Positions 4,173 to 22,281 of a stretch of 41,911 nt of DNA are shown here, one piece after another (position 1 is the stretch's first letter; each line of letters starts with the position of its first letter). The stretch covers positions 1 to 41,911 of the forward strand of contig SKKO01000126.1 in NCBI GenBank assembly GCA_007123715.1. Direction: 5' to 3'. A program made the translations under genes and the position numbers. A model generated the notes under the pieces. It had not been told where the DNA came from and made no database searches. It saw only the letters and a program-made list of their open reading frames with translations. This DNA is from Balneolaceae bacterium (GTDB lineage Bacteria > Bacteroidota > Rhodothermia > Balneolales > Balneolaceae).

Positions 4173-6410
4173 ATGACAGACCTAAGCAGAATGATCGAAA
4201 TCAGAGGGCACGCCAGGGGCGGACAAGGTATGGTTACCGCTTTTGAGATGCTCGCCAAAATCTTTAGCTATCGCTATGATTTTGAGGTACAGGCATTTCC
4301 GTTTTTCGGTGTGGAGCGCACCGGTGCACCTATCCAGGCTTACCTCCGGATTTCACCCGGGCCGATCCGGGTACGCAGCTACATCTATCACCCCAATATG
4401 GCCATCGTGTTCGATGAGGGGCTCATGGAAAATCCCGCCCTGCTCGACGGACTCACCGCAGACGGGACACTCATCATCAACAGTGAAAAACCGCCTTCTG
4501 CCTTTAAAGGGAAAACCCGGCGTGTTGTCACCGTGCCCGCCACCCGGATCTCTGTTGAGAGAAAGCTGGGAAGCAAATCACTACCCATCGTCAATGCCGC
4601 CATGGTAGGCGCCATACTGAGGGTACTTGGCACCGATGTGGAAGAGGCCAGGGAGATCATCGCGCAGGAAGTACCCGTAAAACCCGAAGCCAACGTGGAT
4701 GCCGCTATTACGGCATTCAGCAGCATCAACGAATTTGTGGACGAGCTTTTTCGTCCGCAGCAAACCAACGGCTCTGTTGCCAAATCGCCCAAGCCGGAAT
4801 CCGCGGTACCGTTCTGGGACAAGCCGATGTCTATCAACAAAACGGGCAACTGGAGAGTGGTGGCCCCCAAATACGAAACACGCCAGGCCCCGTGCAGCTA
4901 TAACTGCCCTGCGGGCACCGATGTCCGACTGTTTGTGGATCTCGCCGCAAAAGGAAAGTTCGATGAAGCACTTGATGTGATTTACCGGCACAACCCGTTT
5001 CCCTCGATCTGCGGACGGGTCTGCCCGCATTTCTGCCAACAAAAGTGTAACCGGATGTATCTGGATGGGAATGTTAATATCGGCGCTATTGAGCGGTTTA
5101 TCGGGGATTACGGGAAAGGCGCCCCAACAGCGGTGGTGCCGGTGACCAAAGAAGAGACGATTGCCGTGGTCGGGTCAGGACCTGCGGGTCTCACGGCCGC
5201 GCTGCAGCTCAGAAATCTAGGGTATCACGTTACGGTGTATGAAGCGATGCCCAAAGCCGGGGGCATGATGCGGTCGGGAATTCCGCGATTCCGTCTGCCG
5301 GAAGAAGTGCTGGATGATGAAATCAGGCGTATTGAAGAGCAGGAAGTGGAGATCATCACCGGCAAAAAAGTAACAATCGAAGAGCTGGACGGAAAGTATT
5401 CGGCGATCATCACGGCGGTCGGGTCGCATCTGGGTATGGGTCTCAACCTGGGCAGCCATGATAGCGTTACAGACGGAATAGAATTCCTGCGGGAACTTCT
5501 CATTCATCAAAAAACCGGAAAACTGAACCGGGGTGAAACTGTTGCCGTAATCGGGGGCGGGAATACCGCTGTGGATGTGGCTAGAACGGCCCTTCGTTTC
5601 GGTGCCGTGCCCACCATCTTTTACCGCAGAACGAAGCAGGAAATGCCCGCCATTGCCCACGAGGTGGAAGAGGCAATGAAGGAAGGGGTTGTGCTTGAAT
5701 TTTTATCAGCGCCGGTTGACCTGAAACCGGGAGCAAACGGCCGGCTCGATATGGTAATCCAAAAAATGGAACTGGGTGAGCCGGATGAATCGGGAAGACG
5801 AAGGCCGATGCCGGTACAGGGATCGGAGAAGGTAGTTGCGGTGGATCACATCATCACCGCGATAGGTCAGCGCTCTGATCCGTATGTATTTTCGAACCGA
5901 TCCGTGAAAGCACGCCAGGGTCGGGTGGAACTTGAGAAGCCGCAAACAGGAACCCCCGTTTTCTGTGCCGGTGATATGGCATGGGGCGGCACGGTGGTGG
6001 AAGCGATCGGCAGCGGGAATGATGTGGCCAAAGAAACTGACGCTTTCCTGCGCGGTAAAACCTGGACCAAAAAGGAATCCAGTCTGCCGGTTACCGGGTA
6101 TGATGAGATCAACACGGCTTATTTTATGCCTGCACCCGGCCATGCAACACCGGTGAATATCCCGGCAAACCTTCTGAATAATTTTGAAGAGGTTGCAGGC
6201 GGCCTCAGTCGGGAGACGCTGATGGAAGAAGCGCGGCGGTGCCTGCATTGCGGGGAATGTTTTAATTGCGGCAACTGCCTTAATTTCTGCCCGGATGCCG
6301 CCATCTATATCGATGAGGAGAATCGCCTCAGGGTGAATTACGACTACTGCAAAGGGTGCGGAGTCTGTGTGCGTGAATGCCCCAGCTCGGCGATTCACTA
6401 TTCAGAATAA
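4173..6410 (+). CDS. fused 2-oxoacid:ferredoxin oxidoreductase gamma / NAD(P)H oxidoreductase (GltD-like) / 2[4Fe-4S] ferredoxin
   Basis: This 745-residue protein has three modules. Residues 1 to about 190 are the gamma subunit of a pyruvate/2-oxoacid:ferredoxin oxidoreductase, with RGHARGGQGM at 11-20. Residues of about 240-640 are a glutamate-synthase-small-subunit-like flavoprotein: cysteines in CSYNCPAGTD and CGRVCPHFCQQKC for iron-sulfur clusters, an FAD-binding GSGPAG near 334, and an NAD(P)-binding GGGNTAVDVA near 462. Residues of about 690-740 carry two [4Fe-4S] motifs, CGECFNCGNCLNFCP and CKGCGVCVRECP, equivalent to the delta subunit. The fusion suggests electrons pass directly between the 2-oxoacid centre and NAD(P)H. 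It leads an operon with the alpha and beta genes. The start is ATG 4173 with a GGAG site before it. Substrate (pyruvate is likely) and direction are inferred. Confidence 0.9.
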   Translation: MTDLSRMIEIRGHARGGQGMVTAFEMLAKIFSYRYDFEVQAFPFFGVERTGAPIQAYLRISPGPIRVRSYIYHPNMAIVFDEGLMENPALLDGLTADGTLIINSEKPPSAFKGKTRRVVTVPATRISVERKLGSKSLPIVNAAMVGAILRVLGTDVEEAREIIAQEVPVKPEANVDAAITAFSSINEFVDELFRPQQTNGSVAKSPKPESAVPFWDKPMSINKTGNWRVVAPKYETRQAPCSYNCPAGTDVRLFVDLAAKGKFDEALDVIYRHNPFPSICGRVCPHFCQQKCNRMYLDGNVNIGAIERFIGDYGKGAPTAVVPVTKEETIAVVGSGPAGLTAALQLRNLGYHVTVYEAMPKAGGMMRSGIPRFRLPEEVLDDEIRRIEEQEVEIITGKKVTIEELDGKYSAIITAVGSHLGMGLNLGSHDSVTDGIEFLRELLIHQKTGKLNRGETVAVIGGGNTAVDVARTALRFGAVPTIFYRRTKQEMPAIAHEVEEAMKEGVVLEFLSAPVDLKPGANGRLDMVIQKMELGEPDESGRRRPMPVQGSEKVVAVDHIITAIGQRSDPYVFSNRSVKARQGRVELEKPQTGTPVFCAGDMAWGGTVVEAIGSGNDVAKETDAFLRGKTWTKKESSLPVTGYDEINTAYFMPAPGHATPVNIPANLLNNFEEVAGGLSRETLMEEARRCLHCGECFNCGNCLNFCPDAAIYIDEENRLRVNYDYCKGCGVCVRECPSSAIHYSE

Positions 6411-6486
6411 CAATAAACAATTACACAGGTTCAATGGTTTTATAACCAACTCACATTAATTGAGTATCCAAAAAGCAAGAAAACAA

Positions 6487-7686
6487 ATGACTGAAACACG
6501 GACCACCGAACAGCCCCCTGCCAGACAAGGAGTGTTGCCGCCGCATCATACCAAACGGGTGATGAAAGGGAACAGCGCGGCTGCCGTGGCAGCAAAACTA
6601 TGCCGTGTTTCCCTGGTTACGGCGTATCCCATTACACCGCAAACATCCATAATCGAAGAAATTACCTCCATGATTGACCACGGCGAGTTTGACGCGACTT
6701 CGGTAAACATGGAGAGCGAACACTCTGTATTTGCAGCGCTTAAAGGGGCTTCACTGGTTGGAGAGAGGGTATTCACTGCTACCAGCGGACAAGGCCTGCT
6801 CTACGCCCACGAAGTACTGCACGCCATCGCCCACATGCGTCTGCCGATTGTGGCCTGCAACGTAGGCCGTCCCTCATTCCCATGGAATATCTGGGCCGAC
6901 CAGACCGACTCCATCTCCCAGCGCGATACCGGGTGGGTTCAATACTACTGTGAAAGCTCGCAGGAGGTTTTGGATACTATCATCCAGTCCTACAAACTGG
7001 CAGAAAAACTGCAATTGCCGGTGATGGTGGTGCTGGACGCATTCTACCTGAGCCATACCAGCGAAAATGTATTCCTGCCCGATCAGTCGCTCGTGGATGC
7101 ATTCCTGCCTCCGGCAGAAAATGCGGGCAACCGGATCGATACGAATCACCCGAGAGCATTCGGCGGACTGGTAGGCCCCAATACCTACGACGACTACAAC
7201 CGCCTCTTCTGGGAGGATATGAATAGGGTTGATGAGGGAACCAATGTCATCGGCCGTGAATTCGGCGAACATTTTGGCAGACATTACGGTGCGGTGGAGG
7301 CGGTCAACATCCATCAAAACACCAAAAAGATCCTGGTAGCGATGGCTACCATCACAACCACCGTGAGAGAAGTACTGGACAATTACCCCGATATCGGCCT
7401 GCTCAAAATCCGCCTTTTCAAGCCGTTTCCGAAGATTTCAATCCTGGAAGCCATCAAACCGGCCGGGGAGGATTGTGCCATCATCACCATCGACAGGAAT
7501 TTCACGGGAGATTCCGAAGGCGCCCTGATGCAGGAGATGAAACGGGCGCTATACGGCAATACCGGTAAAGTGTTCGGAGTTTATGCCGGGCTGGGCGGCA
7601 GGGATGTTTCGGTAGAAACAATCGAAAAAATCATCAACCTGGATGTGGATTCTCCACAGACCGATGAAGTAACCTGGATAAAATGA
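6487..7686 (+). CDS. porA: 2-oxoacid:ferredoxin oxidoreductase alpha subunit (pyruvate synthase PorA-like)
   Basis: This 399-residue subunit belongs to the pyruvate:ferredoxin oxidoreductase alpha family. It has the pyrimidine-binding domain signature GNSAAAVAAKLC, then AYPITPQTSIIEEI and ESEHSVFAALKGASLVGERV, followed by TATSGQGLLYAHEVLH. The C-terminal transketolase-like domain ends near GVYAGLGGRDVS. The motif YPITPQT is diagnostic of the pyruvate/2-oxoacid oxidoreductase alpha chain. The ATG at 6487 is preferred over a TTG at 6460. The gene ends in an ATGA overlap with the beta gene. With the upstream gamma/GltD/delta fusion, all four classical subunit functions are present in three genes. 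The choice of pyruvate over 2-oxobutyrate or another substrate is inferred from similarity and from the neighbouring pyruvate-consuming pathways. Confidence 0.9.
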   Translation: MTETRTTEQPPARQGVLPPHHTKRVMKGNSAAAVAAKLCRVSLVTAYPITPQTSIIEEITSMIDHGEFDATSVNMESEHSVFAALKGASLVGERVFTATSGQGLLYAHEVLHAIAHMRLPIVACNVGRPSFPWNIWADQTDSISQRDTGWVQYYCESSQEVLDTIIQSYKLAEKLQLPVMVVLDAFYLSHTSENVFLPDQSLVDAFLPPAENAGNRIDTNHPRAFGGLVGPNTYDDYNRLFWEDMNRVDEGTNVIGREFGEHFGRHYGAVEAVNIHQNTKKILVAMATITTTVREVLDNYPDIGLLKIRLFKPFPKISILEAIKPAGEDCAIITIDRNFTGDSEGALMQEMKRALYGNTGKVFGVYAGLGGRDVSVETIEKIINLDVDSPQTDEVTWIK

Positions 7687-8597
7687 ACAACATGGAACCC
7701 GCAAACAAATTTATCATACAGCAGGAAAATATGTACAGCGGCGCGCTGAGCTGCCGGGGCTGCGGGTGGACGCTCCTCGCGCGGTATGTATCTCACATTA
7801 TGGGTGAAAATACCGTTTATGTAGTGCCTGCTTGCTGTTTTTCCATAATTGCAGGGCCCAATCCCATGAACCTGATGAAGGGTACTGTAGTACACACCCT
7901 GTTTGCTGCAGCTGCCGCAACCGCAACCGGGGTAAGGCATGCGCTCGACAGGCAGGGCAAAACGGATACATCGGTGGTGGTATTGGCCGGAGATGGCGGC
8001 ACGTTTGATATCGGCCTGCAGGCATTATCGGGCGCGGCCGCCAGGCAGGAGAACATTATCTATATCTGCAACAACAACGCCGCGTATATGAACACTGGTG
8101 TTCAAAGCAGTACGGGTACCCCTTCCGGTGCCAAAACCACGACGGACCCATCCGGCAAAAAACTACCCGCAAAGAACCTGATGGGAATTATTGAGGCGCA
8201 TAACCTGCCTTATTATGCCACGGCTTCGCCTGCTTTTCTGAATGACCTTGTTTCGAAACTGGAAAAAGCCAGGGATTCCCGTGGCTTCCGGTTTTTGATG
8301 ATTGACGGGCCTTGTCCGCCGGGGCATAAACACGACCCGGAGATCTCCATCGAACTGGCACGGCTGGCTGTAGAGACCCGGTACTTTCCACTTTTAGAAT
8401 CTGAAAACGGCGAACTAAAAATCAGCTTTGTACCAAAAGAAAAGAGGCCGGTAACCGATTACCTGAAACCCCAGGGTAGATTTGCGCATCTGTTTAACGG
8501 TACTTATTCAAACGGCATTGAAGAGATCCAGAAACAAGTTGATGATAGCTGGCAGCGATTGCTAAATATTCAGAATATAGCATCTCCCCTCCCTTAA
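7683..8597 (+). CDS. porB: 2-oxoacid:ferredoxin oxidoreductase beta subunit (pyruvate synthase PorB-like)
   Basis: This 304-residue subunit binds thiamine diphosphate. The binding motif runs from GDGGTFDIGLQALSGAAARQ (about residues 101-120) to NNNAAYMNTGVQ (about 130-141). The N-terminal cysteines in CRGCGW (about 24-29), CC (near 57-58) and a later cysteine in GPCPPGH match those that hold the beta-subunit [4Fe-4S] cluster. It starts at ATG 7683, overlapping the alpha stop; ATG 7692 is a possible internal alternative. The complex would interconvert pyruvate with acetyl-CoA plus CO2 using low-potential electrons. No terminator with a T-run follows. A dispersed repeat begins within the last codons. 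Confidence 0.9.
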   Translation: MNNMEPANKFIIQQENMYSGALSCRGCGWTLLARYVSHIMGENTVYVVPACCFSIIAGPNPMNLMKGTVVHTLFAAAAATATGVRHALDRQGKTDTSVVVLAGDGGTFDIGLQALSGAAARQENIIYICNNNAAYMNTGVQSSTGTPSGAKTTTDPSGKKLPAKNLMGIIEAHNLPYYATASPAFLNDLVSKLEKARDSRGFRFLMIDGPCPPGHKHDPEISIELARLAVETRYFPLLESENGELKISFVPKEKRPVTDYLKPQGRFAHLFNGTYSNGIEEIQKQVDDSWQRLLNIQNIASPLP

Positions 8598-9004: not shown

Positions 9005-11782
9005 ATGTATTTCAGTGTAACTGACGACAGTATTGAGCTTGAAAAAATCAGGAATGATCTTCAATTTTTACACGAATGTTTTATGAAGATGCTCCGGGAT
9101 TGCGGCGAAGATAACATTGCATCTCTGCTAGAGGATAACAGTTACACCGGGGTTGAATCCCATAAAATCAGTAAGGCATTTTCGCTTTATTTCCAGTTAA
9201 TCACCATCGCGGAAGAGAACGCCGCTGTTCAGCTTCGCCGAAAACTGGAAACAACTCACGGGCTACACCGCATATCAGGATTGTGGGGTCGCACGCTGAA
9301 AGACCTGAAAGAGAGTGGCGTTTCCCCCGAAGAGATCGCTGTAGTACTCCAGGCAAGCATGATTGAACCGGTACTTACCGCCCATCCCACCGAGTCAAAA
9401 CGGTCAACCGTGATCGACCAGCTTCGCTCCATTTATCTTTTGATGGTAAAACGGGAAAATCCGATCTGGACCGGTACCGAGCGGGAACAGATTGAAAACG
9501 AAATTGTTGCGGCCATGCAGCGGCTTTGGCATACCGGCCAGGTATTTCTTCAGAAACCACAAATTGAAGACGAACGGCGAAACATTCTCCATTACCTGCT
9601 GAACGTGTTCCCCCAGGTACTTCCCTTACTGGTTCAGCGGCTCAGGGATGCCTGGGAAAAAACCGGGTTTGATCCGAATTTACTGAGTTCAAGACATTCA
9701 CTTCCTGTGGTTAGTTTTGGCAACTGGGTAGGCGGCGACCGTGACGGGCATCCATTTGTCACAGATGAGGTAACGAACGGGACACTCATGGAATTCAGGC
9801 AACACGCCCTGCACCTGCTGCGGGATGCACTCTCCGGCCTTGCACAGAAGCTCAGTATTTCGGTGCATGAAGCTGCTGTTCCCGAAACCCTGGAGAAGCG
9901 GATAGAGGAAATCAGCCGGCAAATCGGCAAGGGAGCAGAACCTGCACTGGAACGCAATCCGGAAGAACCCTGGAGACAATTTTTGAACCTGATTCAACTT
10001 CTGCTTCCCCTGCACCAAAACGGCGATGTGGTTACAGAACCGGGCTCCGGCTGTTATTATGGTGATGAAACGGAACTGTTAAAAGATCTCGACCTGCTTA
10101 CCGAATCGCTGAGAGAGATCAAAGCTTCACGCATTGCCGATTCCGATGTTGAACCCGTTGCGATTCTGGCAAAAACGTTTGGCTTTCATCTTGCCAGGCT
10201 TGATGTTCGCCAGAACAGCCGCTTCCATGATGCGGCCTTGTCACAAATTCTGAAAGCATCCGGTGTACCCGACGGAGAAAACTTTGCCGAATGGCAGGAA
10301 GAACGCCGGGTTGAATTTCTGAGCCGTGAACTCGAAACACCCAGGCCCTTTGTCCGCGACAATTACGGCCTTGGCAGCGAAGCGGTGGCCGTTTATTCCA
10401 GTTACCGGGTACTTTACAAATATATCAGCCGGTTTGGAAGCCGCGGTATTGGTTCACTGATTGTCAGTATGACACGAAAACCGAGCGATCTGCTTTCGGT
10501 TTATGCGCTGTGCCGTGAGGCCGGCCTGATGAAAATGACGGATAATGGCTTGGTTTGCATGCTGCCCGTGGTACCGCTGCTCGAAACCATTGATGACCTT
10601 GAAAGAGGCCCCGCCATACTGGATGCTTTTTTATCGCATCCCATTACACGCCGTTCACTTGAACACCGTGCCATATCAGAATCAGAGGAACCTGCCCAGC
10701 AGGTGATGATCGGCTACAGTGACAGTAACAAAGACGGTGGTATTCTTGCCAGCCTCTGGAGCCTCCATCTTGCTCAGCGTTCGCTGGCTGAAGCCGGTGA
10801 AAAACAGGGTGTTCAAATCCACTTTTTCCACGGGCGCGGCGGAACCATCAGCCGGGGAGCCGGTCCCACCCACCGTTTTATTGCAGGCCTGCCGCCCGCA
10901 ACCATCAAAGGCCGGATGAGAATTACTGAACAGGGTGAAATGATCTCACAGAAATATGCCAACCGGCTCACTGCCCTCTACAACCTTGAGCTGCTCCAAG
11001 CCGGAACGGTAGGGTTAACTCTCGGTGTATTCGACAAAACCAATACTCGCCGGAATAATAATCAGTCCGATACCGGAAAACTTGAAGAGATCGTAAACCG
11101 CCTTTACGGATTCAGCCTCGGGAGTTATCAGAGCCTGGTTCACTCTGCTGAATTTGTCCGGTTTTTTTCACAGGCCACTCCAATCGATGTGATCGAAATG
11201 AGCAGTATCGGTTCACGGCCGGCCAGGAGAACCGGCAGGCGCACATTTGAAGATCTGCGTGCCATTCCCTGGGTGTTCAGCTGGAGTCAAGCTCGTTTTT
11301 TTCTTACGGGATGGTTTGGAATTGGCTCGGCACTGGAGCGCCTTCAAAAAGAAGATGAAGCTTCCTTTGATCTGCTGAGCCATCATGCCATACAATTTAC
11401 TCCTTTCAGGTATATCATAACAAGTGCTTCTTCGGCCATTGCACTCACGGATACGGAAATCATGAAAGCCTATACATCGTTAGTGGATGACGACGGGCTA
11501 GCCAGCCATTATCTTTCCCTGATTACAAAAGAATTTCATCTGACAAAAAATATGCTTGAACGCCTTTATGGACACCGGCTCAGTGAGCGTCGCCCGCGGC
11601 TCAACCAAATGATTGCATTTCGCTCCGAACGGCTGAAGCCTCTGCACGAACTTCAGATTCGGCAGCTGCAGGAATGGCGTTTGCTTCGTGAGAATGGACA
11701 GGATGAGGAGGCCTCTGAAATGCTCCCCGAGATGCTGCTTGTGCTTAATGCAATCGCCGGCGGCCTGGGAACCACAGGTTAA
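9005..11782 (+). CDS. ppc: phosphoenolpyruvate carboxylase
   Basis: This 925-residue protein has the usual length for bacterial PEP carboxylase, which adds bicarbonate to phosphoenolpyruvate to give oxaloacetate. Catalytic motifs are present in order: TAHPTESKRS near residue 125 (catalytic histidine), GNWVGGDRDGHPF near 238, GYSDSNKDGGILASLW near 570 and the glycine loop FHGRGGTISRGAGPTHRF near 608. The C-terminus ends GLGTTG, where well-studied enzymes end in QNTG, so the conserved Asn is Thr here. It lies alone on the + strand between two direct copies of a 150-bp repeat, directly after the pyruvate synthase operon. The combination allows CO2 to enter at both pyruvate and oxaloacetate. Allosteric control cannot be judged from sequence. 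Confidence 0.95.
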   Translation: MYFSVTDDSIELEKIRNDLQFLHECFMKMLRDCGEDNIASLLEDNSYTGVESHKISKAFSLYFQLITIAEENAAVQLRRKLETTHGLHRISGLWGRTLKDLKESGVSPEEIAVVLQASMIEPVLTAHPTESKRSTVIDQLRSIYLLMVKRENPIWTGTEREQIENEIVAAMQRLWHTGQVFLQKPQIEDERRNILHYLLNVFPQVLPLLVQRLRDAWEKTGFDPNLLSSRHSLPVVSFGNWVGGDRDGHPFVTDEVTNGTLMEFRQHALHLLRDALSGLAQKLSISVHEAAVPETLEKRIEEISRQIGKGAEPALERNPEEPWRQFLNLIQLLLPLHQNGDVVTEPGSGCYYGDETELLKDLDLLTESLREIKASRIADSDVEPVAILAKTFGFHLARLDVRQNSRFHDAALSQILKASGVPDGENFAEWQEERRVEFLSRELETPRPFVRDNYGLGSEAVAVYSSYRVLYKYISRFGSRGIGSLIVSMTRKPSDLLSVYALCREAGLMKMTDNGLVCMLPVVPLLETIDDLERGPAILDAFLSHPITRRSLEHRAISESEEPAQQVMIGYSDSNKDGGILASLWSLHLAQRSLAEAGEKQGVQIHFFHGRGGTISRGAGPTHRFIAGLPPATIKGRMRITEQGEMISQKYANRLTALYNLELLQAGTVGLTLGVFDKTNTRRNNNQSDTGKLEEIVNRLYGFSLGSYQSLVHSAEFVRFFSQATPIDVIEMSSIGSRPARRTGRRTFEDLRAIPWVFSWSQARFFLTGWFGIGSALERLQKEDEASFDLLSHHAIQFTPFRYIITSASSAIALTDTEIMKAYTSLVDDDGLASHYLSLITKEFHLTKNMLERLYGHRLSERRPRLNQMIAFRSERLKPLHELQIRQLQEWRLLRENGQDEEASEMLPEMLLVLNAIAGGLGTTG

Positions 11783-11788
11783 TTTTTA

Positions 11789-11818
11789 GTCGTTCATCAT
11801 AGGAGATGAACAGACGAC
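11789..11818 (+). terminator. hairpin just after ppc (weak terminator candidate)
   Basis: gtcg plus ttcatc pairs with gatgaa plus cgac, with a four-base bulge on the 3' side, starting 7 bases after the ppc stop. There is no T-run after it, so it may only stabilise the mRNA end. Confidence 0.3.
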
Positions 11819-11881
11819 CATGAATCAGGTAAGTAAATGTATACATGACCTGAAATTATTAAAATAATTCACCCAAATTCA

Positions 11882-12026
11882 CCTCCCGTAATCCGGTCAG
11901 GAAATTAACGAATAGGGCTTTTAAAAGATCTTTTTGGGGCCACTAATACCCTAAGATTTCACAAAGCTTATCAAGTCCATTATTCTTTGTGATCCTTCGT
12001 GTCTTCGAGCCTTCGTGGCTAAAAAA
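11882..12026 (+). repeat. dispersed repeat copy 2 (downstream of ppc)
   Basis: This is the second copy of the element at 8588-8736, in the same orientation, with an identical 3' block (tgatccttcgtgtcttcgag followed by ccttcgtggctaaaaa) and scattered changes in the 5' half. It lies between the converging ends of ppc and ilvD. Its 3' edge merges with the T-run of the ilvD terminator. Confidence 0.85.
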
Positions 12027-12045
12027 AATCCGGGGTAGCCGGATT
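12021..12045 (-). terminator. intrinsic terminator of ilvD
   Basis: Read on the - strand, a 7-bp stem aatccgg/ccggatt with loop ctacc is followed by eight or more T residues, directly after the ilvD stop. This is a textbook rho-independent terminator. Confidence 0.85.
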
Positions 12046-12051
12046 ACAGCT

Positions 12052-13728
12052 CTATCCATCTGTCACGCATCCTTCGCTTGCCGTGGATACGTATTTTGCG
12101 TATTTGTACAGAATTCCGCTCTTGTATTTTAATTCGGGAGCTTCCCAGTTTTGTCGGCGTTCTGCCAGCTCGTCATCCGAAAGGGCCACCTGCAGAATCC
12201 TCTCGTCAGCATCAATGGTAATCCTGTCCCCGTCTTGTAGCAGGGCGATGGCGCCACCAAGCTGTGCTTCGGGTGTGATATGGCCTATTACGAAACCGTG
12301 AGTTCCTCCCGAAAAGCGTCCGTCGGTAATCAGTGCCACCTCATTGCCCAGCCCGGCTCCCATGATGGCAGCGGTGATGGAGAGCATCTCCCTCATGCCG
12401 GGACCACCTTTGGGCCCTTCGTAACGAATCACAACAACGTCGCCTTTTTTTACTTTCCCCGCCTGGATACCTGTGAGGCAATCCTCCTCCGAATCAAACA
12501 CTTTGGCCGTACCCGTGAACCGTGTACCCTCTTTGCCCGTGATTTTCGCCACGCTCCCATCCGGTGAAAGATTGCCGTACATAATCTGCAGATGCCCTGT
12601 TTTTTTAACGGGGTCTGATACCTGACGAATAACGTTCTGTTCTTCCAGAAGTCCGGGTAAGTTGGCTACATTCTCTTCCAGGGTATAGCCCGTCACGGTG
12701 ATACAGTCTCCATGCAGGTATCCGTGTTCCAGCAACAGTTTTTGCACGGCAGGAACCCCGCCAACATTGTATAAATCTTCCATTACATACTTGCCGCTCG
12801 GCTTCAGGTTGGCAAGGAATGGTGTGCGGTCGCTCACTGACTGAAAATCATCAATTGTAAAATCAACTTCTGCCGCTTTTGCAATGGCAAGCATATGCAT
12901 GACGGCGTTGGTAGAACCGCCCAATGCAATAATCATGGCTACTGCGTTTTCAATCGATTTCCTGGTAATGATATCGCGCGGTTTGATGTCTTTTTCCAGG
13001 ATGTGATAAATCGCTTTGCCGGCCTTTTCGCACTCTGTAATTTTCTCTTTATGGGTAGCCGGAATGGATGAACTGTAGGGAAGGCTCATTCCCATCGTCT
13101 CAATGGCGGAGGCCATTGTATTGGCGGTGTACATTCCGCCACAGGCTCCGGCACCCGGGCAGGCGTGTTTCAAAACTCTGTTCATCTCCTCTTCATCCAT
13201 CTCTTTTGCAAGAAATTTACCATATGACTCAAAAGCAGAGACAATATCAAGCTTTTGGCCGTTCAGGTTGCCCGGACGTATGGTGCCACCATATACCATG
13301 ATCGAAGGACGGTTTACGCGGGCCATGGCCATCACCGAACCCGGCATATTTTTATCGCACCCAACCACTGAAATATTGGCATCATACCACTGCGCCTGCA
13401 TCACCACTTCAATAGAATCTGCAATGATATCGCGCGAAGGAAGCGAAAACTTCATGCCCTGTGTTCCCATTGAAATACCGTCACTTACACCAATGGAGTG
13501 AAATACAAACCCAACCATGTTATTTGCCCATACCGACTTCTTGATCACAGCAGCCAGATCGTTCAAATGCATATTGCACGGATTGCCGTCCCATCCGGTG
13601 CTTGCAATTCCAACCTGAGCCTTTTTCATGTCTTCCTCGCTCAAACCTGTGGCATAAAGCATTGCTTTTGAACCTACCTGTGCCTGTTCCTGGGTTAATC
13701 TGGAGCTATATTTGTTCAATTTCGTCAT
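12052..13728 (-). CDS. ilvD: dihydroxy-acid dehydratase
   Basis: This 558-residue protein is the IlvD/Edd-family dehydratase that converts 2,3-dihydroxy-isovalerate and 2,3-dihydroxy-3-methylvalerate to the 2-oxo acids of valine and isoleucine. Iron-sulfur ligands are visible in GCDKNMPG and in [19 protein letters not shown]. The C-terminal half carries [12 protein letters not shown] and the GRFSGGTHG signature. The length matches the family. It is divergent from ilvB and the rest of the pathway, with a 520-bp region between the two starts. It has its own terminator at 12021-12045. A palindromic AAGCGCTT site lies 63-77 bases before its start codon and may regulate it. Confidence 0.97.
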
Positions 13729-13790
13729 GTTTTGATGATATAATGTTAGTTATTGATATACAGTGTTTTAGGTACTCATATTTACATACA

Positions 13791-13805
13791 TGGAAGCGCT
13801 TTTAA
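13791..13805. promoter_or_regulatory. LacI-type operator candidate upstream of ilvD
   Basis: TGGAAGCGCTTTTAA, with a palindromic AAGCGCTT core, differs at one position from the site at 30285-30299 upstream of gapA. CG-centred palindromes of this kind are typical LacI/CcpA-family operators. No regulator gene is in the window. Confidence 0.45.
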
Positions 13806-13857
13806 TAAAACTATTCCACAATTCAAAATTTATTTTATCAATGATATAAAAAAAATC

Positions 13858-13884
13858 TTGACTCATATACACTCTTTGTATAAG
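13858..13884 (+). promoter_or_regulatory. candidate promoter for the ilvB leader/operon
   Basis: TTGACT (13858-13863) and TATAAG (13879-13884) resemble -35 and -10 boxes. The spacer is only 15 bases and the phylum often uses different consensus boxes, so this is a weak call. It would drive the small ORF at 13920 and ilvB. Confidence 0.3.
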
Positions 13885-13919
13885 TTTTTAGATCTGATGT
13901 TCACGTAACAGATTACACT

Positions 13920-14162
13920 TTGTCTACCGCAATAACTTACATAAATTCTTATCAAGGTCACATCATTTATGATGTTTGCAAATCGGTTACCGGTTTGGCA
14001 ATAGCAATTTTTGTTTCTGTTACCAGCTTCATTTTACTTTCCTATTTGGCAGTTTCTTTACTCTCTATCACAGTCATTGACAGTATCAGTATCATTTTCG
14101 GGCTGATTATACTTTCTATTTTAATTTCTGGCATTCTAATTCTAAACCTACTTATCAGATAA
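13920..14162 (+). CDS. small hydrophobic Ile/Leu/Val-rich ORF in the ilvB leader
   Basis: This is an 80-codon open frame with a TTG start. About half its residues are Ile, Leu or Val, for example SIIFGLIILSILISGILILN near the C-terminus. It predicts two membrane helices, at about residues 24-48 and 55-78. I recognise no family. It lies 36 bases after a possible promoter and ends 86 bases before the ilvB start. It could be a small membrane protein, a translated leader that senses branched-chain aminoacyl-tRNA supply, or a chance frame. The absence of an ATG and of a clear ribosome binding site keeps confidence low. Confidence 0.35.
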   Translation: MSTAITYINSYQGHIIYDVCKSVTGLAIAIFVSVTSFILLSYLAVSLLSITVIDSISIIFGLIILSILISGILILNLLIR

Positions 14163-14248
14163 CCATATCTGCCTGAGGTTAGAAGCCAAATCCTACATTT
14201 TAGATTTACTTTGACCTCTGGCGGGAAACGTACACCCCCTGAGGCAAC

Positions 14249-16039
14249 ATGAAATCAACCAAACCAATAAACCCTGCTGAAAACATTCCACCGAAATCCA
14301 CATTGAAGCCGTTCATCAGGCAACAAACTGATAGCGATACCCAATCATACAGCGGATCGGAAATCTTGATCAAAACCCTTGTAGATCTGGGTGTAGACAC
14401 GATTTTCGGTTACCCGGGCGGAGCAGTACTTCCGATCTATGATACACTTTTTGGAAATCATGACCTGAAGCACATTCTGATTCGTCACGAGCAGGCCGGC
14501 ACCCATGCTGCCGACGGTTATTCACGTGCTACCGGAAAACCGGGTGTCGTTCTCGCCACTTCAGGTCCTGGCGGAACCAACACAGTTACCGGTATTGCCA
14601 CTGCCATGATGGATTCCATCCCCCTCGTGGTGCTCACGGGCCAGGTGCCCACCAGTGTTATCGGAAATGATGCCTTTCAGGAAGCGGATATTGTGGGTAT
14701 TACCCGTCCTATCACCAAACAAAACTACCTGGTACGCGATGTTAATAATCTGGAACACGTATTAAAGGAAGCATTTCATATCGCCACTCACGGACGGCCC
14801 GGACCCGTTTTAGTCGACCTGCCCAAAGATATGCTCAATACCAAAGGCAAATATGCCGGGCTCGATAATGATGTAGATATTCCCAGTTTCAAGCCTACAC
14901 TTTACGGACATCACCCACAGATTGCCAAGGCAGCCGAGATGCTTAGCAATGCCAAAAAACCATTGATCTATGTTGGCGGCGGAGCCATCCTCGGGAGGGC
15001 ATGGGAGGAGGTAACTGCATTTGCCGAACGTTTGAATATCCCTGTAACAACCACTCTGATGGGCCTTGGAGCCTTTCCGGAAAGCAAACCACAGTCTCTT
15101 GGAATGCTCGGGATGCACGGTACCTGGTATGCCAATATGGCTATGACCGAATGTGATGTTCTGATTGCCGTTGGCGCCCGCTTTGATGACCGTGTTACAG
15201 GCCGTTTAGATGGATTTTCTCAAAACTCTCTTAAAATACATATCGATATTGATCCTTCCTGCATCGGCAAAAACGTTGAAGTTGAAGTACCGATCGTGGG
15301 CGATGTGAAACATGTGATTCCTGCCATTGACAAACTGGCCACACCGCCAAAAATTGACAAGTGGTGGGCTACTATCCATAAATGGCAAAAAGAGCATCCG
15401 CTTGTGGTGCCCAAGGCTGATGATAAAATTTATCCTCAGCATATGGTTAAAATGATTTCTGAAATAACCAACGGCAATGCCATTGTGGTAACCGATGTGG
15501 GGCAGCACCAGATGTGGGCCGCGCAGCACTATCACTATAATCATCCCCGCTCCTGGATATCCTCGGGCGGATTGGGAACGATGGGATACGGTTTTCCTGC
15601 AGCTATGGGAGCGGCGCTTGCCTGTCCCGACCGCGATGTTGTCTGCATCACGGGCGATGGAGGTTTCCAGATGTCATCCTATGAACTGGCCACCGCCGTT
15701 GAGTACAAAATCCCCGTGAAAATTGCCCTCATGAATAATAATTGCCTCGGGATGGTTCGCCAGTGGCAGCAACTCTTTTTCGACAAACGCTATAGTTACT
15801 CTGTGTTTGGTTCCAATAATCCCGATTTCGTTAAAATGGCAGAAAGCTATGGATGCTTAGGGCTGCGGGCTACCAATCCCAAAGAATTAAAAGACGTACT
15901 GGAGCAGGCAATGGCTGTAAAAGATGCCCCTGTTCTTATGGACATACGGGTTGTGGAAGAAGAAAACTGTTATCCGATGGTGCCTTCAGGGGCAGCACTA
16001 AATGAAATGGTTGAATCAGACGAAGAGGCTGGTATATAA
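14249..16039 (+). CDS. ilvB: acetolactate synthase large (catalytic) subunit
   Basis: This 596-residue thiamine-diphosphate enzyme condenses two pyruvates to acetolactate, or pyruvate with 2-oxobutyrate to acetohydroxybutyrate. Motifs seen are IFGYPGGAVLPIYD near residue 52, HEQAGTHAADGYSRATGKPGV with the catalytic glutamate, and the cofactor motif GDGGFQMSSYELATAVEYKI to NNNCLGMVRQWQQLFF. About 30 extra residues precede the core at the N-terminus. The start ATG 14249 has GAGG four bases upstream. One base separates its stop from the ilvN start, so the two subunits are co-translated. Confidence 0.96.
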   Translation: MKSTKPINPAENIPPKSTLKPFIRQQTDSDTQSYSGSEILIKTLVDLGVDTIFGYPGGAVLPIYDTLFGNHDLKHILIRHEQAGTHAADGYSRATGKPGVVLATSGPGGTNTVTGIATAMMDSIPLVVLTGQVPTSVIGNDAFQEADIVGITRPITKQNYLVRDVNNLEHVLKEAFHIATHGRPGPVLVDLPKDMLNTKGKYAGLDNDVDIPSFKPTLYGHHPQIAKAAEMLSNAKKPLIYVGGGAILGRAWEEVTAFAERLNIPVTTTLMGLGAFPESKPQSLGMLGMHGTWYANMAMTECDVLIAVGARFDDRVTGRLDGFSQNSLKIHIDIDPSCIGKNVEVEVPIVGDVKHVIPAIDKLATPPKIDKWWATIHKWQKEHPLVVPKADDKIYPQHMVKMISEITNGNAIVVTDVGQHQMWAAQHYHYNHPRSWISSGGLGTMGYGFPAAMGAALACPDRDVVCITGDGGFQMSSYELATAVEYKIPVKIALMNNNCLGMVRQWQQLFFDKRYSYSVFGSNNPDFVKMAESYGCLGLRATNPKELKDVLEQAMAVKDAPVLMDIRVVEEENCYPMVPSGAALNEMVESDEEAGI

Positions 16040-16040
16040 T

Positions 16041-16565
16041 ATGTCGGACTCAATAGCGATCAAACAGCCAAAGCACACACTTTCTGTGCTTGTTAAACAT
16101 AATCTCAATACACTTTCCCGGATAATCGGTATTTTCAGCGCAAAAGGATTCGAACTGGATAGTGTCACCTTTGCTGCAGAAGCAGAACCGGGAATGGCCA
16201 GAATTACCATCACTACCCGGGGCGATGAAAAAACGGTTGAACAAATCAATAAACTCCTTCACAATGTGGTGGATGTTTTAAAAGTGATTAACCTCACGCA
16301 TAAAAAATCGATTGAACGAGAACTGGCGATTATTAAAGTATCAACTGTAAAAGCCGGCCGGCCTGAAATCATGCTCATTGCACAGGCATTCAAAGCCAAG
16401 GTTATTGATATAACAATCGATAAACTGGCACTGGAAGTCACAGGAAATTCCGATAAAGTAGATGCAATGATCGAAGTACTGAAACCATACGGAATTGTAG
16501 CCATGTCACGTACAGGAAGCGTTGCACTGAAACGAGAATTCCAGGGCGCGGTAAACATTAACTGA
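16041..16565 (+). CDS. ilvN: acetolactate synthase small (regulatory) subunit
   Basis: This 174-residue protein has an N-terminal ACT domain, HTLSVLVKHNLNTLSRIIGI then FSAKGFELDSVTFA (about residues 12-45), followed by the typical KVSTVKAGRPEIMLIAQAFK and a C-terminal ALS_ss domain ending in LKPYGIVAMSRTGSVALKR. The family activates the large subunit and makes it sensitive to valine. I chose ATG 16041, one base after the ilvB stop. The frame is open back to 16002, but that segment overlaps ilvB. Confidence 0.95.
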   Translation: MSDSIAIKQPKHTLSVLVKHNLNTLSRIIGIFSAKGFELDSVTFAAEAEPGMARITITTRGDEKTVEQINKLLHNVVDVLKVINLTHKKSIERELAIIKVSTVKAGRPEIMLIAQAFKAKVIDITIDKLALEVTGNSDKVDAMIEVLKPYGIVAMSRTGSVALKREFQGAVNIN

Positions 16566-16595
16566 TGAACTGAAATATTTAATATTCGGCAAATA

Positions 16596-16678
16596 CCTCC
16601 TTGCAGAGGCTGTGAGAAAATCAATTTTCAAATGTAAATAATACTTTAATTAGTGACCGCCTCTGAAGGGGGCTTTTT
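16596..16678 (+). promoter_or_regulatory. attenuator-like structure between ilvN and ilvC
   Basis: gcctc (16659-16663) can pair with ggggc (16669-16673) and is followed by TTTTT (16674-16678), forming a short intrinsic terminator. The same 5' arm, gcctctg (16659-16665), is perfectly complementary to cagaggc (16604-16610), which in turn can form a hairpin with cctc (16596-16599). The alternatives are mutually exclusive, as in an attenuator. No leader peptide is evident. Confidence 0.4.
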
Positions 16679-16725
16679 AAACTTCAACAATTTATTACAA
16701 CTCAATTAAAACAAATAAGTAAAGA

Positions 16726-17733
16726 ATGAAAGCCAAAACATATTATAACGGAGATGCCGATCTCGATTATTTATCCGGAAAAACAGTAGCCATCATAGGT
16801 TACGGAAGCCAGGGACATGCACACGCACTCAACCTTCGGGACAGCGGCATTAACGTGATCGTAGGCCTCCGCAAGAGCAGCAAATCGTGGCAAGAAGCCG
16901 AAGATGCAGGGCTCAAAGTCTATGAAACCGCTGAAGCTGCCGAAAAGGGAGATATCGTGATGGTGCTTATCCCCGACCAGTACCAGGGGCCTGTTTACAA
17001 GGAAAGCATTAAACCGAATCTGAAACCGGGGAATGCGCTGATGTTTGCTCACGGCTTCAACATTCATTTTAACGAAATTGTACCCCCTGATGATGTTGAT
17101 GTATTCATGGTGGCGCCCAAAGGCCCCGGGCACCTTGTGCGTCGCGTATATACCGAAGGATCCGGCGTTCCCTGCCTCTTTGCCATCTACCAGGATGCCA
17201 GCGGTACCGCTAAGGATAACGCACTTGCATATGCGAAGGCGATAGGTGGAGCACGTGCCGGTGTACTCGAAACTACTTTCAAGGAAGAAACCGAAACCGA
17301 CCTCTTCGGCGAACAGGCTGTTCTATGCGGAGGTGCGTCAGAATTGGTAAAAATAGGATTTGAAGTGTTGGTTGAAGCGGGATACCAGCCGGAAATTGCC
17401 TATTTTGAATGCCTCCATGAACTGAAACTCATTGTAGATCTGATGTACGAAGGCGGTATCGAGCGGATGTATTATTCCGTAAGTGACACCGCAGAATACG
17501 GCGGTCTTTCAAGGGGAACACGTGTTATCGATTCCGACACCAAAAAACGGATGAAGAGCATCCTTGAAGAAGTACAGAACGGTTCTTTTGCCAAAGAGTG
17601 GATGGATGAAAACCGTGCCGGTCTGCCTGAACTCACAAAGATGAGAAGCTCTCTCGGTGATCATCAGATCGAAAAAATCGGAAAAGAATTGCGGTCCATG
17701 ATGGACTGGATAGAGGTTAAAAAACCAGCCTGA
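16726..17733 (+). CDS. ilvC: ketol-acid reductoisomerase (class I)
   Basis: This 335-residue class I enzyme converts acetolactate and acetohydroxybutyrate to dihydroxy acids using a pyridine nucleotide. The Rossmann motif [17 protein letters not shown] is at about residues 26-42. The knotted C-terminal domain carries [17 protein letters not shown] and [18 protein letters not shown], with the magnesium-binding acids. The loop after the Rossmann strand reads [12 protein letters not shown]; its serine and basic residues suggest NADPH preference. Length is that of bacterial class I. An attenuator-like structure lies just upstream. Confidence 0.97.
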
Positions 17734-17798
17734 ACCCCAGGCAGAAACCGCTGAATAAATTATTTTCGGTTGAGAAATTCAAAATAATCCATATCAAC

Positions 17799-19430
17799 AT
17801 GCCAGTACAAATCCAGATATTCGACACTACCCTCCGCGACGGAACCCAGGGCGAGAAAGTGTCCTTTTCGGCGGAGGATAAATTCCGGATTGCGATGCGT
17901 TTGGATGAGTTCGGGATTCATTACATCGAAGGCGGATGGCCGGGATCGAACCCGAAAGACATGGCATTTTTTGAAAAAGCGAAACACCATACTTTCCGGC
18001 AGTCAAAGATTGTGGCTTTCGGCAGTACCTGCCGAACCGGAAATTCCCCGCAGGAAGATCCAAACCTGCAGGCACTTATTGAAGCTGAAACACCCGCCGT
18101 TTCGGTGTTTGGCAAATCATGGCTCCTGCATGTAACTCAAGCTCTGAATATTACCCCTGAGAAAAACCTCGAGCTTATTTCAGGCTCTCTCAAATACCTG
18201 AAAGAACACGGTAAAGAGGTAATATATGACGCAGAGCACTTTTTTGACGGCTATAAGGACAATCCCGGTTATGCCATACAATCTCTGCTCGCTGCACAGG
18301 ATGCAGGTGCCGATGTTCTGGTTCTTTGCGACACCAACGGCGGAACTCTTACGCATGAAGTAATGGAAATTGTTCAGTGTGTACGTGATGCCGTTCACGC
18401 ACCCATTGGAATTCATGCCCATAACGATTCTGAACTGGCCGTCGCCAATTCTCTGGCTGCCATCCGTGCTGGTGCAATACACGTTCAGGGTACCATCAAC
18501 GGATATGGCGAACGCTGCGGCAATGCGAACCTCTGTTCTGTAATTCCAAACCTGCAGCTTAAACTCGGATACCGTTGTGTGAGCAGTGATCAACTGGAAC
18601 GGCTTTCCACTCTCTCTAAATTTGTGAGTGAACTTGGAAACCTAATTCCCGACAATAAACAGCCATACGTCGGGAAAAGTGCATTTGCCCATAAAGGCGG
18701 TGTTCATGTAAGCGCCGTTATCAAAAATGAACAGACTTACGAACACATCAAACCTGAACTGGTAGGAAACAGCCGCAGGGTGTTGGTTTCTGACCTGTCC
18801 GGCAAAAGCAACGTTTCCTACAAATCTGAAGAACTGGGCTTTGATTTTGATAAAAAATCTGTTGAAAGTTCACAGATTGTACAGGAGCTGAAAAAACTGG
18901 AAAACGAAGGTTACCAGTTCGAGGCTGCTGAAGCATCATTTGAATTGCTCGTGAAACGGATGACCAATAAAGCACCCGATTTTTTCAAGCTCGAAGGTTT
19001 TCGGGTCATTATGGAACGCAATGCGAATGGCGAATCCCGGTCAGAAGCTACGATTAAAGTGCGGGTGAATGACCAGATTGAACTCAGTGCTGCTGAGGGT
19101 AACGGCCCGGTACATGCACTGGATGCCGCACTGAGGCGTGCACTTTGCGAGTTTTACCCGGAAATTTCTTCCATGCATTTACAGGATTATAAAGTGCGGG
19201 TATTGAACGAAAAAGACGGAACCGGTGCCAAAGTACGCGTACTGATCGACTCGGCCAAAGACGGCTCAAGCTGGGGCACAGTCGGCGTTTCCGAAAATAT
19301 TATTGATGCAAGCTGGAAGGCGTTGTCTGAAGGTATCATCTATTTCCTGATGAATCAAAAAAGTAAACCAAAGAACAGACACAGCCTGGCCGATTCCGGT
19401 CAGGATGAAAAATTAAAAATTCCCTCATGA
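17799..19430 (+). CDS. cimA: (R)-citramalate synthase
   Basis: This 543-residue DRE-TIM metallolyase starts with [20 protein letters not shown]; the DTTLRDGTQ wording, with GTQ rather than GEQ, is typical of citramalate synthase. HAHNDSELAVANSLAAIRAG supplies metal-binding histidines, and HVQGTINGYGERCGNANL follows. The C-terminal part (about residues 400-520) is a LeuA-type allosteric dimer domain, including GPVHALDAALRRAL. The enzyme condenses pyruvate with acetyl-CoA to citramalate, which LeuC, LeuD and LeuB then convert to 2-oxobutyrate for isoleucine. Its position between ilvC and leuA fits this. A closely related alternative is a homocitrate or isopropylmalate synthase, but the sequence favours CimA. 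Confidence 0.9.
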   Translation: MPVQIQIFDTTLRDGTQGEKVSFSAEDKFRIAMRLDEFGIHYIEGGWPGSNPKDMAFFEKAKHHTFRQSKIVAFGSTCRTGNSPQEDPNLQALIEAETPAVSVFGKSWLLHVTQALNITPEKNLELISGSLKYLKEHGKEVIYDAEHFFDGYKDNPGYAIQSLLAAQDAGADVLVLCDTNGGTLTHEVMEIVQCVRDAVHAPIGIHAHNDSELAVANSLAAIRAGAIHVQGTINGYGERCGNANLCSVIPNLQLKLGYRCVSSDQLERLSTLSKFVSELGNLIPDNKQPYVGKSAFAHKGGVHVSAVIKNEQTYEHIKPELVGNSRRVLVSDLSGKSNVSYKSEELGFDFDKKSVESSQIVQELKKLENEGYQFEAAEASFELLVKRMTNKAPDFFKLEGFRVIMERNANGESRSEATIKVRVNDQIELSAAEGNGPVHALDAALRRALCEFYPEISSMHLQDYKVRVLNEKDGTGAKVRVLIDSAKDGSSWGTVGVSENIIDASWKALSEGIIYFLMNQKSKPKNRHSLADSGQDEKLKIPS

Positions 19431-19442
19431 GAGCGGATATTT

Positions 19443-19567
19443 CCGAAGGGATACCTTCGGCAAGAGGTGTGTTAAGGAAGGCTAACGCCCATTCATAAAC
19501 ACACTAATCGTTTGCCCCGATCACGACTGCGTCGTATCGGGACTACACTTTCCCCTCCCAAGAGGGG
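19443..19567 (+). promoter_or_regulatory. structured leader of leuA: three consecutive hairpins
   Basis: Three strong hairpins lie in the 172-base cimA-leuA gap. The first is ccgaagg-GATA-ccttcgg (19443-19460). The second is cccgat-c-acgac with loop tgc and gtcgt-atcggg (19516-19541), an 11-bp stem with one bulge. The third is cccctc-ccaa-gagggg (19552-19567), followed by ACTTTATAAT. None has a proper T-run. Roles could be mRNA processing, regulation, or simply inserted palindromic repeats. Confidence 0.55.
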
Positions 19568-19602
19568 ACTTTATAATACCAAAACCAAAACGATCAACGA
19601 TC

Positions 19603-20796: not shown

Positions 20797-20862
20797 ACTC
20801 ACCGCGCACCTAACGAAACAATACAGAAAAACAAAACCTAATACAAAACTCCATCATTTATT

Positions 20863-22176: not shown

Positions 22177-22196
22177 TCATAATTGAGAATAAAGGC

Positions 22197-22222
22197 CTGA
22201 CAGCGTCCCAGCGACCTGTCAG
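22197..22222 (+). repeat. perfect palindrome in the leuC-leuD gap
   Basis: ctgacag (22197-22203) pairs with ctgtcag (22216-22222), and an inner gtc (22205-22207) pairs with gac (22213-22215). No T-run follows. It could be a dispersed palindromic unit or an mRNA processing/stability element inside the leu operon. Confidence 0.6.
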
Positions 22223-22281
22223 CGCCTGCCTCTCTCACACAGATCGAACGAATCAAAACAGCTAAATAAGTTAATTAACCA

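What the first reader, a model, noticed from the sequence alone, without database searches (positions are those of the whole stretch)
4173..6410. 2-oxoacid oxidoreductase gamma and delta parts fused to a GltD-like NAD(P)H flavoprotein
The protein joins the gamma subunit, an FAD/NAD(P)-binding GltD-like module with its own cysteine clusters, and a 2[4Fe-4S] ferredoxin domain. The complex could therefore couple 2-oxoacid chemistry directly to NAD(P)H, or bifurcate electrons as other GltD-like flavoproteins do, without a separate ferredoxin reductase.
Basis: partly seen in the sequence, partly recalled or inferred. Interest (0 to 1): 0.55.

Follow-up and report, generated by a model that had tools for sequence, protein, structure and literature searches.

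The report
Pyruvate oxidoreductase fused to NADP(H) flavoprotein
A bacterial enzyme that splits pyruvate-like acids carries, welded into one of its own subunits, a flavin module that most likely hands the electrons straight to the cell's NADP; it is a rare new arrangement of known parts rather than a new kind of enzyme.

Summary
Window 4173-6410 (+) encodes one 745-aa protein: PorC-type gamma subunit (7-186), GltD-like Fe-S/FAD/NADP(H) module (about 213-632), 2[4Fe-4S] PorD-type domain (694-742), followed by porA and porB. It is not an artefact: the same fusion occurs in 12 distinct sequences of one clade, in 8 of 128 genomes of the order and in Rhodothermaceae, Cyclobacteriaceae and Phaeodactylibacter. 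Its origin is visible: relatives keep gamma and GltD-Fd as adjacent genes in the same order, in one case in frame with a single TGA between. Related GltD-Fd proteins also sit beside NifJ pyruvate:ferredoxin oxidoreductases. The cofactor-site residues are invariant. The GltD cluster-binding segment that is N-terminal in Nfn lies here beside the ferredoxin domain. Best reading: a 2-oxoacid (probably pyruvate):NADP+ oxidoreductase, running pyruvate to NADPH. Classical bifurcation is unlikely: the genome lacks NfnA/PyrK-type and NfnB partners, and GltD-like modules without them do not bifurcate (PMC9365771, PMC10482914). No activity has been shown. New variant of a known kind.

The parts
4173..6410 (+). 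whole fused subunit gamma-GltD-Fd, 745 aa
4191..4730 (+). PorC-type gamma domain, residues 7-186
   Evidence: TIGR02175 above cut-off, PF01558; P. furiosus POR gamma chain 9bt4_E 3.2e-30 (the organism name of 9bt4 is recalled)
4731..4808 (+). variable linker, residues 187-212, joining gamma to the GltD-like module
   Evidence: low conservation and length variation in alignment A1; pN 0.35 against 0.09-0.10 on either side
4809..5150 (+). GltD-like Fe-S head (Fer4_20), residues 213-326; Cys 241, 245, 280, 284, 288, 292 and Glu307 in the place of the NfnB glutamate ligand
   Evidence: PF14691; alignment to StnC and NfnI-L; invariant in 9 of 9
5151..6068 (+). FAD and NAD(P)H Rossmann domains, residues 327-632; GSGPAGL, GGGNTA and YRRT motifs
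   Evidence: PF07992; motifs in A1
6183..6251 (+). relocated GltD cluster-binding segment, residues 671-693 (F-E-V..GL...EA-RCLHC)
   Evidence: HMM of this segment matches residues 35-64 and 42-71 of Nfn-type proteins, E 4e-5 and 6e-5
6252..6398 (+). PorD-type 2[4Fe-4S] ferredoxin domain, residues 694-742
   Evidence: TIGR02179, PF12838
6460..7686 (+). porA, alpha subunit (true start probably ATG 6487, where the relatives' proteins begin)
   Evidence: PF01855 2.6e-59; POR alpha 9bt4_B 3e-77; relatives align from residue 10
7683..8597 (+). porB, beta subunit with TPP domain and four Cys aligned to cysteines of POR beta
   Evidence: PF02775; 9bt4_C 3.2e-57; overlaps porA by 4 bases

Best explanation
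The three genes encode a heterotrimer-based 2-oxoacid:NADP+ oxidoreductase, most likely pyruvate + CoA + NADP+ -> acetyl-CoA + CO2 + NADPH. PorA/PorB decarboxylate the oxoacid on TPP and pass electrons one at a time to the PorB [4Fe-4S] cluster, then through the two clusters of the C-terminal PorD-type domain. These are joined to the two GltD clusters, because the segment with Cys690 and Cys693 is inferred to complete the outer GltD cluster together with N-terminal cysteines. The inner cluster (with Glu307) passes the electrons to FAD, which makes a hydride for NADP+. The fusion fixes the stoichiometry and keeps the chain in one polypeptide, so no free ferredoxin or separate reductase is needed. 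Shown here: domain order, intact motifs, operon, single origin, gene-pair relatives. Inferred: reaction, substrate, NADP preference, cluster ligation, direction.
For: All parts present and above or near family cut-offs. FAD/NADP motifs, Glu307, Arg374, YRRT and all 16 cluster cysteines invariant in 9 of 9 fused proteins. dN/dS of the FAD/NADP part 0.078 against 0.055 for gamma (window vs L059). Gene order fused/porA/porB in 8 of 8 genome-contig loci (porB cut by the contig end in L063). Split relatives gamma / GltD-Fd / porA / porB in L100 and L101. Further pairings of GltD-Fd with PorGAB (L105) and with NifJ in 5 Bacteroidota and 3 Pseudomonadota loci. The GltD-like proteins of the structures aligned share the YRR motif and are named or described as NADP(H) enzymes; a lone GltD-like protein, CAC0764, was purified and is strictly NADP(H)-dependent (PMC9365771, passages). 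StnC shows a GltD-like module acting as a linear NADPH conduit (PMC10482914, abstract, section 9 and passages).
Against: No biochemical data. NADP versus NAD rests on motif similarity. The own genome also has NifJ, two KorA-type genes, PDH and OGDH E1, so the need for this enzyme is unclear and the substrate may not be pyruvate. The cluster ligation could not be modelled: AlphaFold2 gave mean pLDDT 60.4 and under 50 for 635-745. Four GltD-Fd-like proteins of 577-578 aa (L044, L051, L055, L057) have no 2-oxoacid oxidoreductase in the roughly 1.4 kb flanks read, so the pairing is not universal in the wider family.
Confidence: 0.7

Rival explanations
1. The complex bifurcates or confurcates electrons: the GltD-type FAD splits NADPH electrons between a high-potential acceptor and the oxoacid/ferredoxin branch, as NfnB does in Nfn.
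For: Glu307 and Arg374 stand where NfnB has its glutamate ligand and Arg201 (alignment, numbering counted by hand; PMC10482914).
Against: The same Arg is in non-bifurcating StnC and a Glu ligand is in GltS (PMC8097209 passages), so neither is diagnostic. NfnA-type [2Fe-2S]/FAD partner missing: PF10418 matches 0 in the window's genome and in G017 and G020, the nearest fused relatives. CAC0764 without NfnA did not bifurcate (PMC9365771). Pyruvate oxidation is strongly downhill to NADP+ (recalled potentials), so no coupling is needed.
Confidence: 0.07
2. Reductive use: NADPH drives acetyl-CoA + CO2 -> pyruvate (pyruvate synthase), feeding the PEP carboxylase and branched-chain amino-acid genes downstream.
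For: ppc and an ilv/cimA/leu cluster lie downstream in the window; ppc follows also in L059 and L060, and ilv genes in L110.
Against: Uphill from NADPH by well over 100 mV (recalled). Other fused loci (L061, L064, L065, L066, L103, L104) have other neighbours.
Confidence: 0.1
3. An ordinary ferredoxin-dependent oxidoreductase whose GltD module only serves as a side exit or as structure, with free ferredoxin the true acceptor.
For: The PorD-type domain is complete and could still dock a free ferredoxin.
Against: The FAD/NADP part is under purifying selection like the catalytic parts and its motifs are invariant.
Confidence: 0.08
4. Same mechanism but another 2-oxoacid, for example 2-oxoisovalerate, or NAD+ as acceptor.
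For: PorB scores best with a 3-methyl-2-oxobutanoate dehydrogenase beta model (PRK11864, 340 bits, below its cut-off of 405) and PorA below all equivalog cut-offs; the genome already has PDH and NifJ.
Against: PorA scores higher with the pyruvate model (362 bits) than with VOR (314 bits), and shares the Thr (not the Arg of oxalate oxidoreductase) and the NIW-D--DSI-QRDTGW stretch of the POR alpha chain 9bt4_B.
Confidence: 0.2

Closest known systems
PorGDAB-type pyruvate:ferredoxin oxidoreductase (PDB 9bt4)
   Same: alpha, beta, gamma and delta modules all present by sequence
   Different: gamma and delta are one chain with a GltD-like flavoprotein between them; four-subunit POR has no flavin (recalled)
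PRK12771/NF009410 'NAD(P)-binding protein' (GltD-Fd, about 540-590 aa) beside PorGAB or NifJ
   Same: same GltD-Fd order and the relocated cluster segment; scores of 499 and 488 bits just under the cut-off of 516 for two fused proteins, 584-768 bits for four free-standing ones
   Different: here carries the gamma subunit as an N-terminal domain; fused clade is separate, 100/100 support. No function given by the family
2-oxoglutarate:NADP+ oxidoreductase KorABC of Azoarcus (Aromatoleum) evansii
   Same: recalled, not read: an FAD-containing NADP-linked 2-oxoacid oxidoreductase with a separate GltD-like KorC
   Different: recalled: no gamma-GltD fusion, other substrate. The paper is not held, so this is a lead only
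Phenylglyoxylate:NAD+ oxidoreductase PadEFGHI (A. evansii)
   Same: 2-oxoacid oxidoreductase that uses a pyridine nucleotide directly (title of Hirsch 1998 seen in a reference list); PadE, G, I models match gamma, alpha, beta below their cut-offs
   Different: flavoprotein PadH is another family: its model does not match P0001's locus at E 1e-3
Pyruvate:NADP+ oxidoreductase (PNO) of Euglena
   Same: POR fused to an NADP reductase, same net reaction (name and role seen in PMC8611851 passages; domain make-up recalled)
   Different: PNO uses a cytochrome P450 reductase-type FMN/FAD module (recalled); no such domain here
StnC of the Stn transhydrogenase; CAC0764 ferredoxin-NADP+ reductase
   Same: GltD-like module as non-bifurcating NADP(H) conduit; StnC-like proteins (L112, L068) also have the cluster segment C-terminal to the GltD domain
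   Different: partners are NuoG/Hyd-type subunits or free ferredoxin, not a 2-oxoacid oxidoreductase

Membership tests
2-oxoacid:acceptor oxidoreductase (POR type) | alpha, beta with TPP fold, gamma and delta modules in one operon | tested here: met
2-oxoacid:acceptor oxidoreductase (POR type) | CoA- and TPP-dependent oxoacid oxidation | not testable with these tools
   needs enzyme assay
GltD-like NAD(P)H flavoproteins | Fer4_20 head with two cluster sites plus FAD and NAD(P)H Rossmann domains | tested here: met
   part of the cluster-binding segment lies C-terminal
PRK12771/NF009410 subfamily | score over curated cut-off 516 | tested here: not met
   499 bits for P0001, 488 for L064; nearest family all the same
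Nfn bifurcating transhydrogenase | NfnA partner with [2Fe-2S] (PF10418) and second FAD | tested here: not met
   no match in the window's genome, 98% complete
PadEFGHI phenylglyoxylate:NAD+ oxidoreductase | PadH-type flavoprotein | tested here: not met
   NF045765 search of the own genome does not list the locus
Pyruvate:NADP+ oxidoreductase (PNO) | C-terminal flavodoxin/P450-reductase module | tested here: not met
   no such Pfam match in P0001, PorA or PorB
KorABC 2-oxoglutarate:NADP+ oxidoreductase | separate GltD-like KorC with fused gamma-alpha KorA | tested here: inconclusive
   architecture recalled only; papers not held. Here gamma is fused to GltD, not to alpha

The most novel reading that the evidence does not exclude
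GltD-Fd proteins with a relocated cluster-binding segment define an uncharacterised class of NADP-linked 2-oxoacid oxidoreductases. They assembled more than once, with NifJ and with PorGAB, and once fused through gamma: a prokaryotic counterpart of Euglena PNO built from an unrelated flavoprotein, and reversible enough to serve as an NADPH-driven pyruvate synthase at high CO2.
Probability: 0.2. Interest if true: 0.6.

Novelty: new variant of a known kind. Interest (0 to 1): 0.4.

Why it matters
If right, oxoacid oxidation in these bacteria yields NADPH directly, bypassing the ferredoxin pool. That changes redox book-keeping in genome-based models, where such loci are likely to be read as ferredoxin-dependent. 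A single-chain NADP-linked POR subunit would also be a handy part for NADPH supply or CO2 fixation. The relocated segment shows how GltD modules become wired to ferredoxin domains. No description of this fusion turned up in the searches of open-access papers, which miss most subscription journals.

Tried and rejected
Rejected: (1) Artefact of assembly or frameshift: the fusion recurs in independent assemblies. (2) PadH as the nearest flavoprotein: I recalled it as GltD-like, but its model does not match. (3) Nfn-like bifurcation: no partner. (4) A role in the ppc/ilv/leu cluster: neighbours differ in most fused loci.

Led nowhere: AlphaFold2 on 9 rows gave a poor model, not used for any claim; the second prediction job and fold searches were not run because a deeper alignment would need sequences the tool does not admit. 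Paper searches gave mostly unrelated hits. Sigma-70 and terminator scans were about at the level of shuffles (promoter-like 6 against 5.4, sd 2.0; terminator-like 10 against 6.9, sd 3.1). Other phyla could be sampled only through the plasmid collection, where 0 of 143 records with a match cover 80% of P0001.

Caveats on counts: the gene-pair count comes from the best-scoring GltD-Fd hits, not from a random sample; G451 matches like the split form but its neighbours were not read, nor were those of the two further fused hits G364 and G365. dS is saturated in several comparisons. The 388 targets still held four fused rows with a different start, which I left out when reading the result. In one search the core used for the tree was residues 210-610, because the window row was read from the gapped alignment. 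Residue correspondences to NfnB and StnC were counted by hand on the alignments.

Full report
What is there. Window 4173-6410 (+) is one open reading frame of 745 codons starting with ATG. Three parts follow one another: a PorC-type gamma domain (TIGR02175, 141 bits, residues 7-186), a GltD-like module (Fer4_20 237-313, Pyr_redox_2 330-613) and a PorD-type 2[4Fe-4S] domain (TIGR02179, 691-743). The whole stretch 219-742 fits one NCBIfam model, PRK12771/NF009410, at 499 bits, just under its cut-off of 516. porA (6460-7686, probably from ATG 6487) and porB (7683-8597) follow; porA and porB overlap by four bases. The antisense frames inside the gene (for example 5706-6398, minus) were not followed.

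Is it real. Full-length homologues were found in 6 of 40 close genomes, 5 of them among the 25 of the same genus, own genome included, in 8 of 128 genomes of the order, and in 3 of 296 and 2 of 394 genomes drawn from the phylum (the draws overlap). A separate named collection gave 8 loci: four Balneolaceae, one Rhodothermaceae, one Cyclobacteriaceae and two Phaeodactylibacter MAGs, some of them the same genomes. In all 8 the fused gene is followed by porA and porB (porB is cut by the contig end in L063). A tree of the GltD core puts the 12 distinct fused sequences on one branch with 100/100 support. The distribution is patchy, so loss or lateral transfer is likely; I did not test which.

Where it came from. 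Two relatives, G288 and G077, carry gamma, GltD-Fd, porA and porB as separate genes in exactly that order (L100, L101). In G288 gamma and GltD-Fd are in the same frame with a single TGA between. A third, G197, has gamma, porA, porB, GltD-Fd (L105). Others place a GltD-Fd protein directly before a single-chain NifJ enzyme: five Bacteroidota (G052, G137, G164, G072, G183) and three Pseudomonadota records (Phenylobacterium, Methylovirgula, Aeromonas). So GltD-Fd proteins partner 2-oxoacid oxidoreductases of two builds. These loci were taken from the best matches; four more distant 577-578-aa relatives had no such neighbour in the flanks read.

The cysteines. The GltD head has six cysteines (241, 245, 280, 284, 288, 292) and lacks the EAxRCLxC segment that precedes it in Nfn-type proteins. 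That segment is found instead at 671-693, next to the ferredoxin domain. A profile made from 23 such C-terminal segments matched residues 35-64 and 42-71, the N-termini, of two Nfn-type proteins at E 4e-5 and 6e-5 among 388 frames; the best shuffled frame gave 0.24, and four of the five GltD-type heads seen gave only 0.08-0.2, no better than that. StnC-like proteins have it C-terminal too. I infer that Cys690 and Cys693 complete the outer GltD cluster and that the other eight bind the two ferredoxin clusters. The structure prediction was too poor to test this.

Cofactor sites. By hand count on the alignments, Glu307 stands where NfnB has its glutamate ligand and StnC has Lys170; Arg374 stands for NfnB Arg201 and StnC Arg239. 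Both are invariant in 9 of 9 fused proteins, as are the FAD and NADP glycine motifs and YRRT. The YRR motif is shared with the aligned Nfn and Stn chains. PorB Cys24, 27, 52 and 211 align with cysteines of the POR beta chain 9bt4_C (counted by hand). Selection on the FAD/NADP part is about as strong as on gamma (dN/dS 0.078 and 0.055, window against L059), while the linker is free; synonymous sites are near saturation, so these are rough.

How it likely works. Pyruvate (or a related oxoacid) and CoA are oxidised at the TPP of PorA/PorB; electrons pass the PorB cluster, the two ferredoxin clusters, the two GltD clusters and FAD, and leave as a hydride on NADP+. Precedents: CAC0764, a lone GltD-like protein, is strictly NADP(H)-dependent and does not bifurcate (PMC9365771, passages read); in StnC the GltD-like module is a straight NADPH conduit (PMC10482914, abstract, section 9 and passages); a review describes GltD-like modules as making NAD(P)H electrons available to partner domains through low-potential clusters (PMC8097209, passages). 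Direction pyruvate to NADPH follows from redox potentials (recalled).

Bifurcation. The window's genome (98% complete) has no PF10418 match and no other GltD-like protein above 55 bits; three fused relatives (G007, G012, G029) have a PF10418 gene next to a TIGR01316 gene, an NfnAB-like pair, elsewhere in the genome. RnfC over cut-off was absent in 9 of 9 genomes searched, G048 being the nearest at 205 bits. So the complex has no visible partner for classical bifurcation.

Context. The genome also has NifJ, two KorA-type genes, and PDH and OGDH E1-type genes. The fused enzyme is therefore an accessory one, and its substrate may differ from pyruvate. The ppc and ilv/leu neighbours are shared only with the closest relatives.

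Known or new. The parts and the principle of an NAD(P)-linked 2-oxoacid oxidoreductase are known (PadEFGHI, PNO; KorABC of A. evansii is recalled and could not be read). PadH belongs to another flavoprotein family and PNO uses another reductase (recalled). What I found no mention of in the searches made is the gamma-GltD-Fd fusion and the recurrent GltD-Fd/NifJ pair (no search was aimed at the NifJ pair alone). I file it as a new variant of a known kind.

Noticed in passing
L067 4941-11230, L069 4905-11231, L106 5180-11484: Cassette GltD-Fd / NifJ / dihydroorotate-dehydrogenase-like protein in Alphaproteobacteria plasmids and Bacteroidota; together the parts recall those of dihydropyrimidine dehydrogenase.
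   Followed up: partly
L108 5759-13832 (G000:C260): In the window's own genome NifJ is followed by a DHOD-like protein, a ferredoxin and KorA/KorB-like genes, without a GltD-Fd gene.
   Followed up: no
window 9005-23951: PEP carboxylase followed by ilvD (minus strand), ilvB, ilvH, ilvC, a citramalate-synthase-like gene (17799-19430), leuA, leuC, leuD, leuB (named by eye from the translations).
   Followed up: no
L100 2410-4897: Behind the split POR operon of G288 lies a second alpha/beta pair of 2-oxoacid oxidoreductase type.
   Followed up: no
L008 25-2928: A 968-aa GltD-like protein with the EAKRCLRC segment at its extreme C-terminus, another order of the same cluster-binding piece.
   Followed up: no
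L044, L051, L055, L057: 577-578-aa GltD-Fd relatives in Bacteroidota without a 2-oxoacid oxidoreductase in the flanks read; partner unknown.
   Followed up: no
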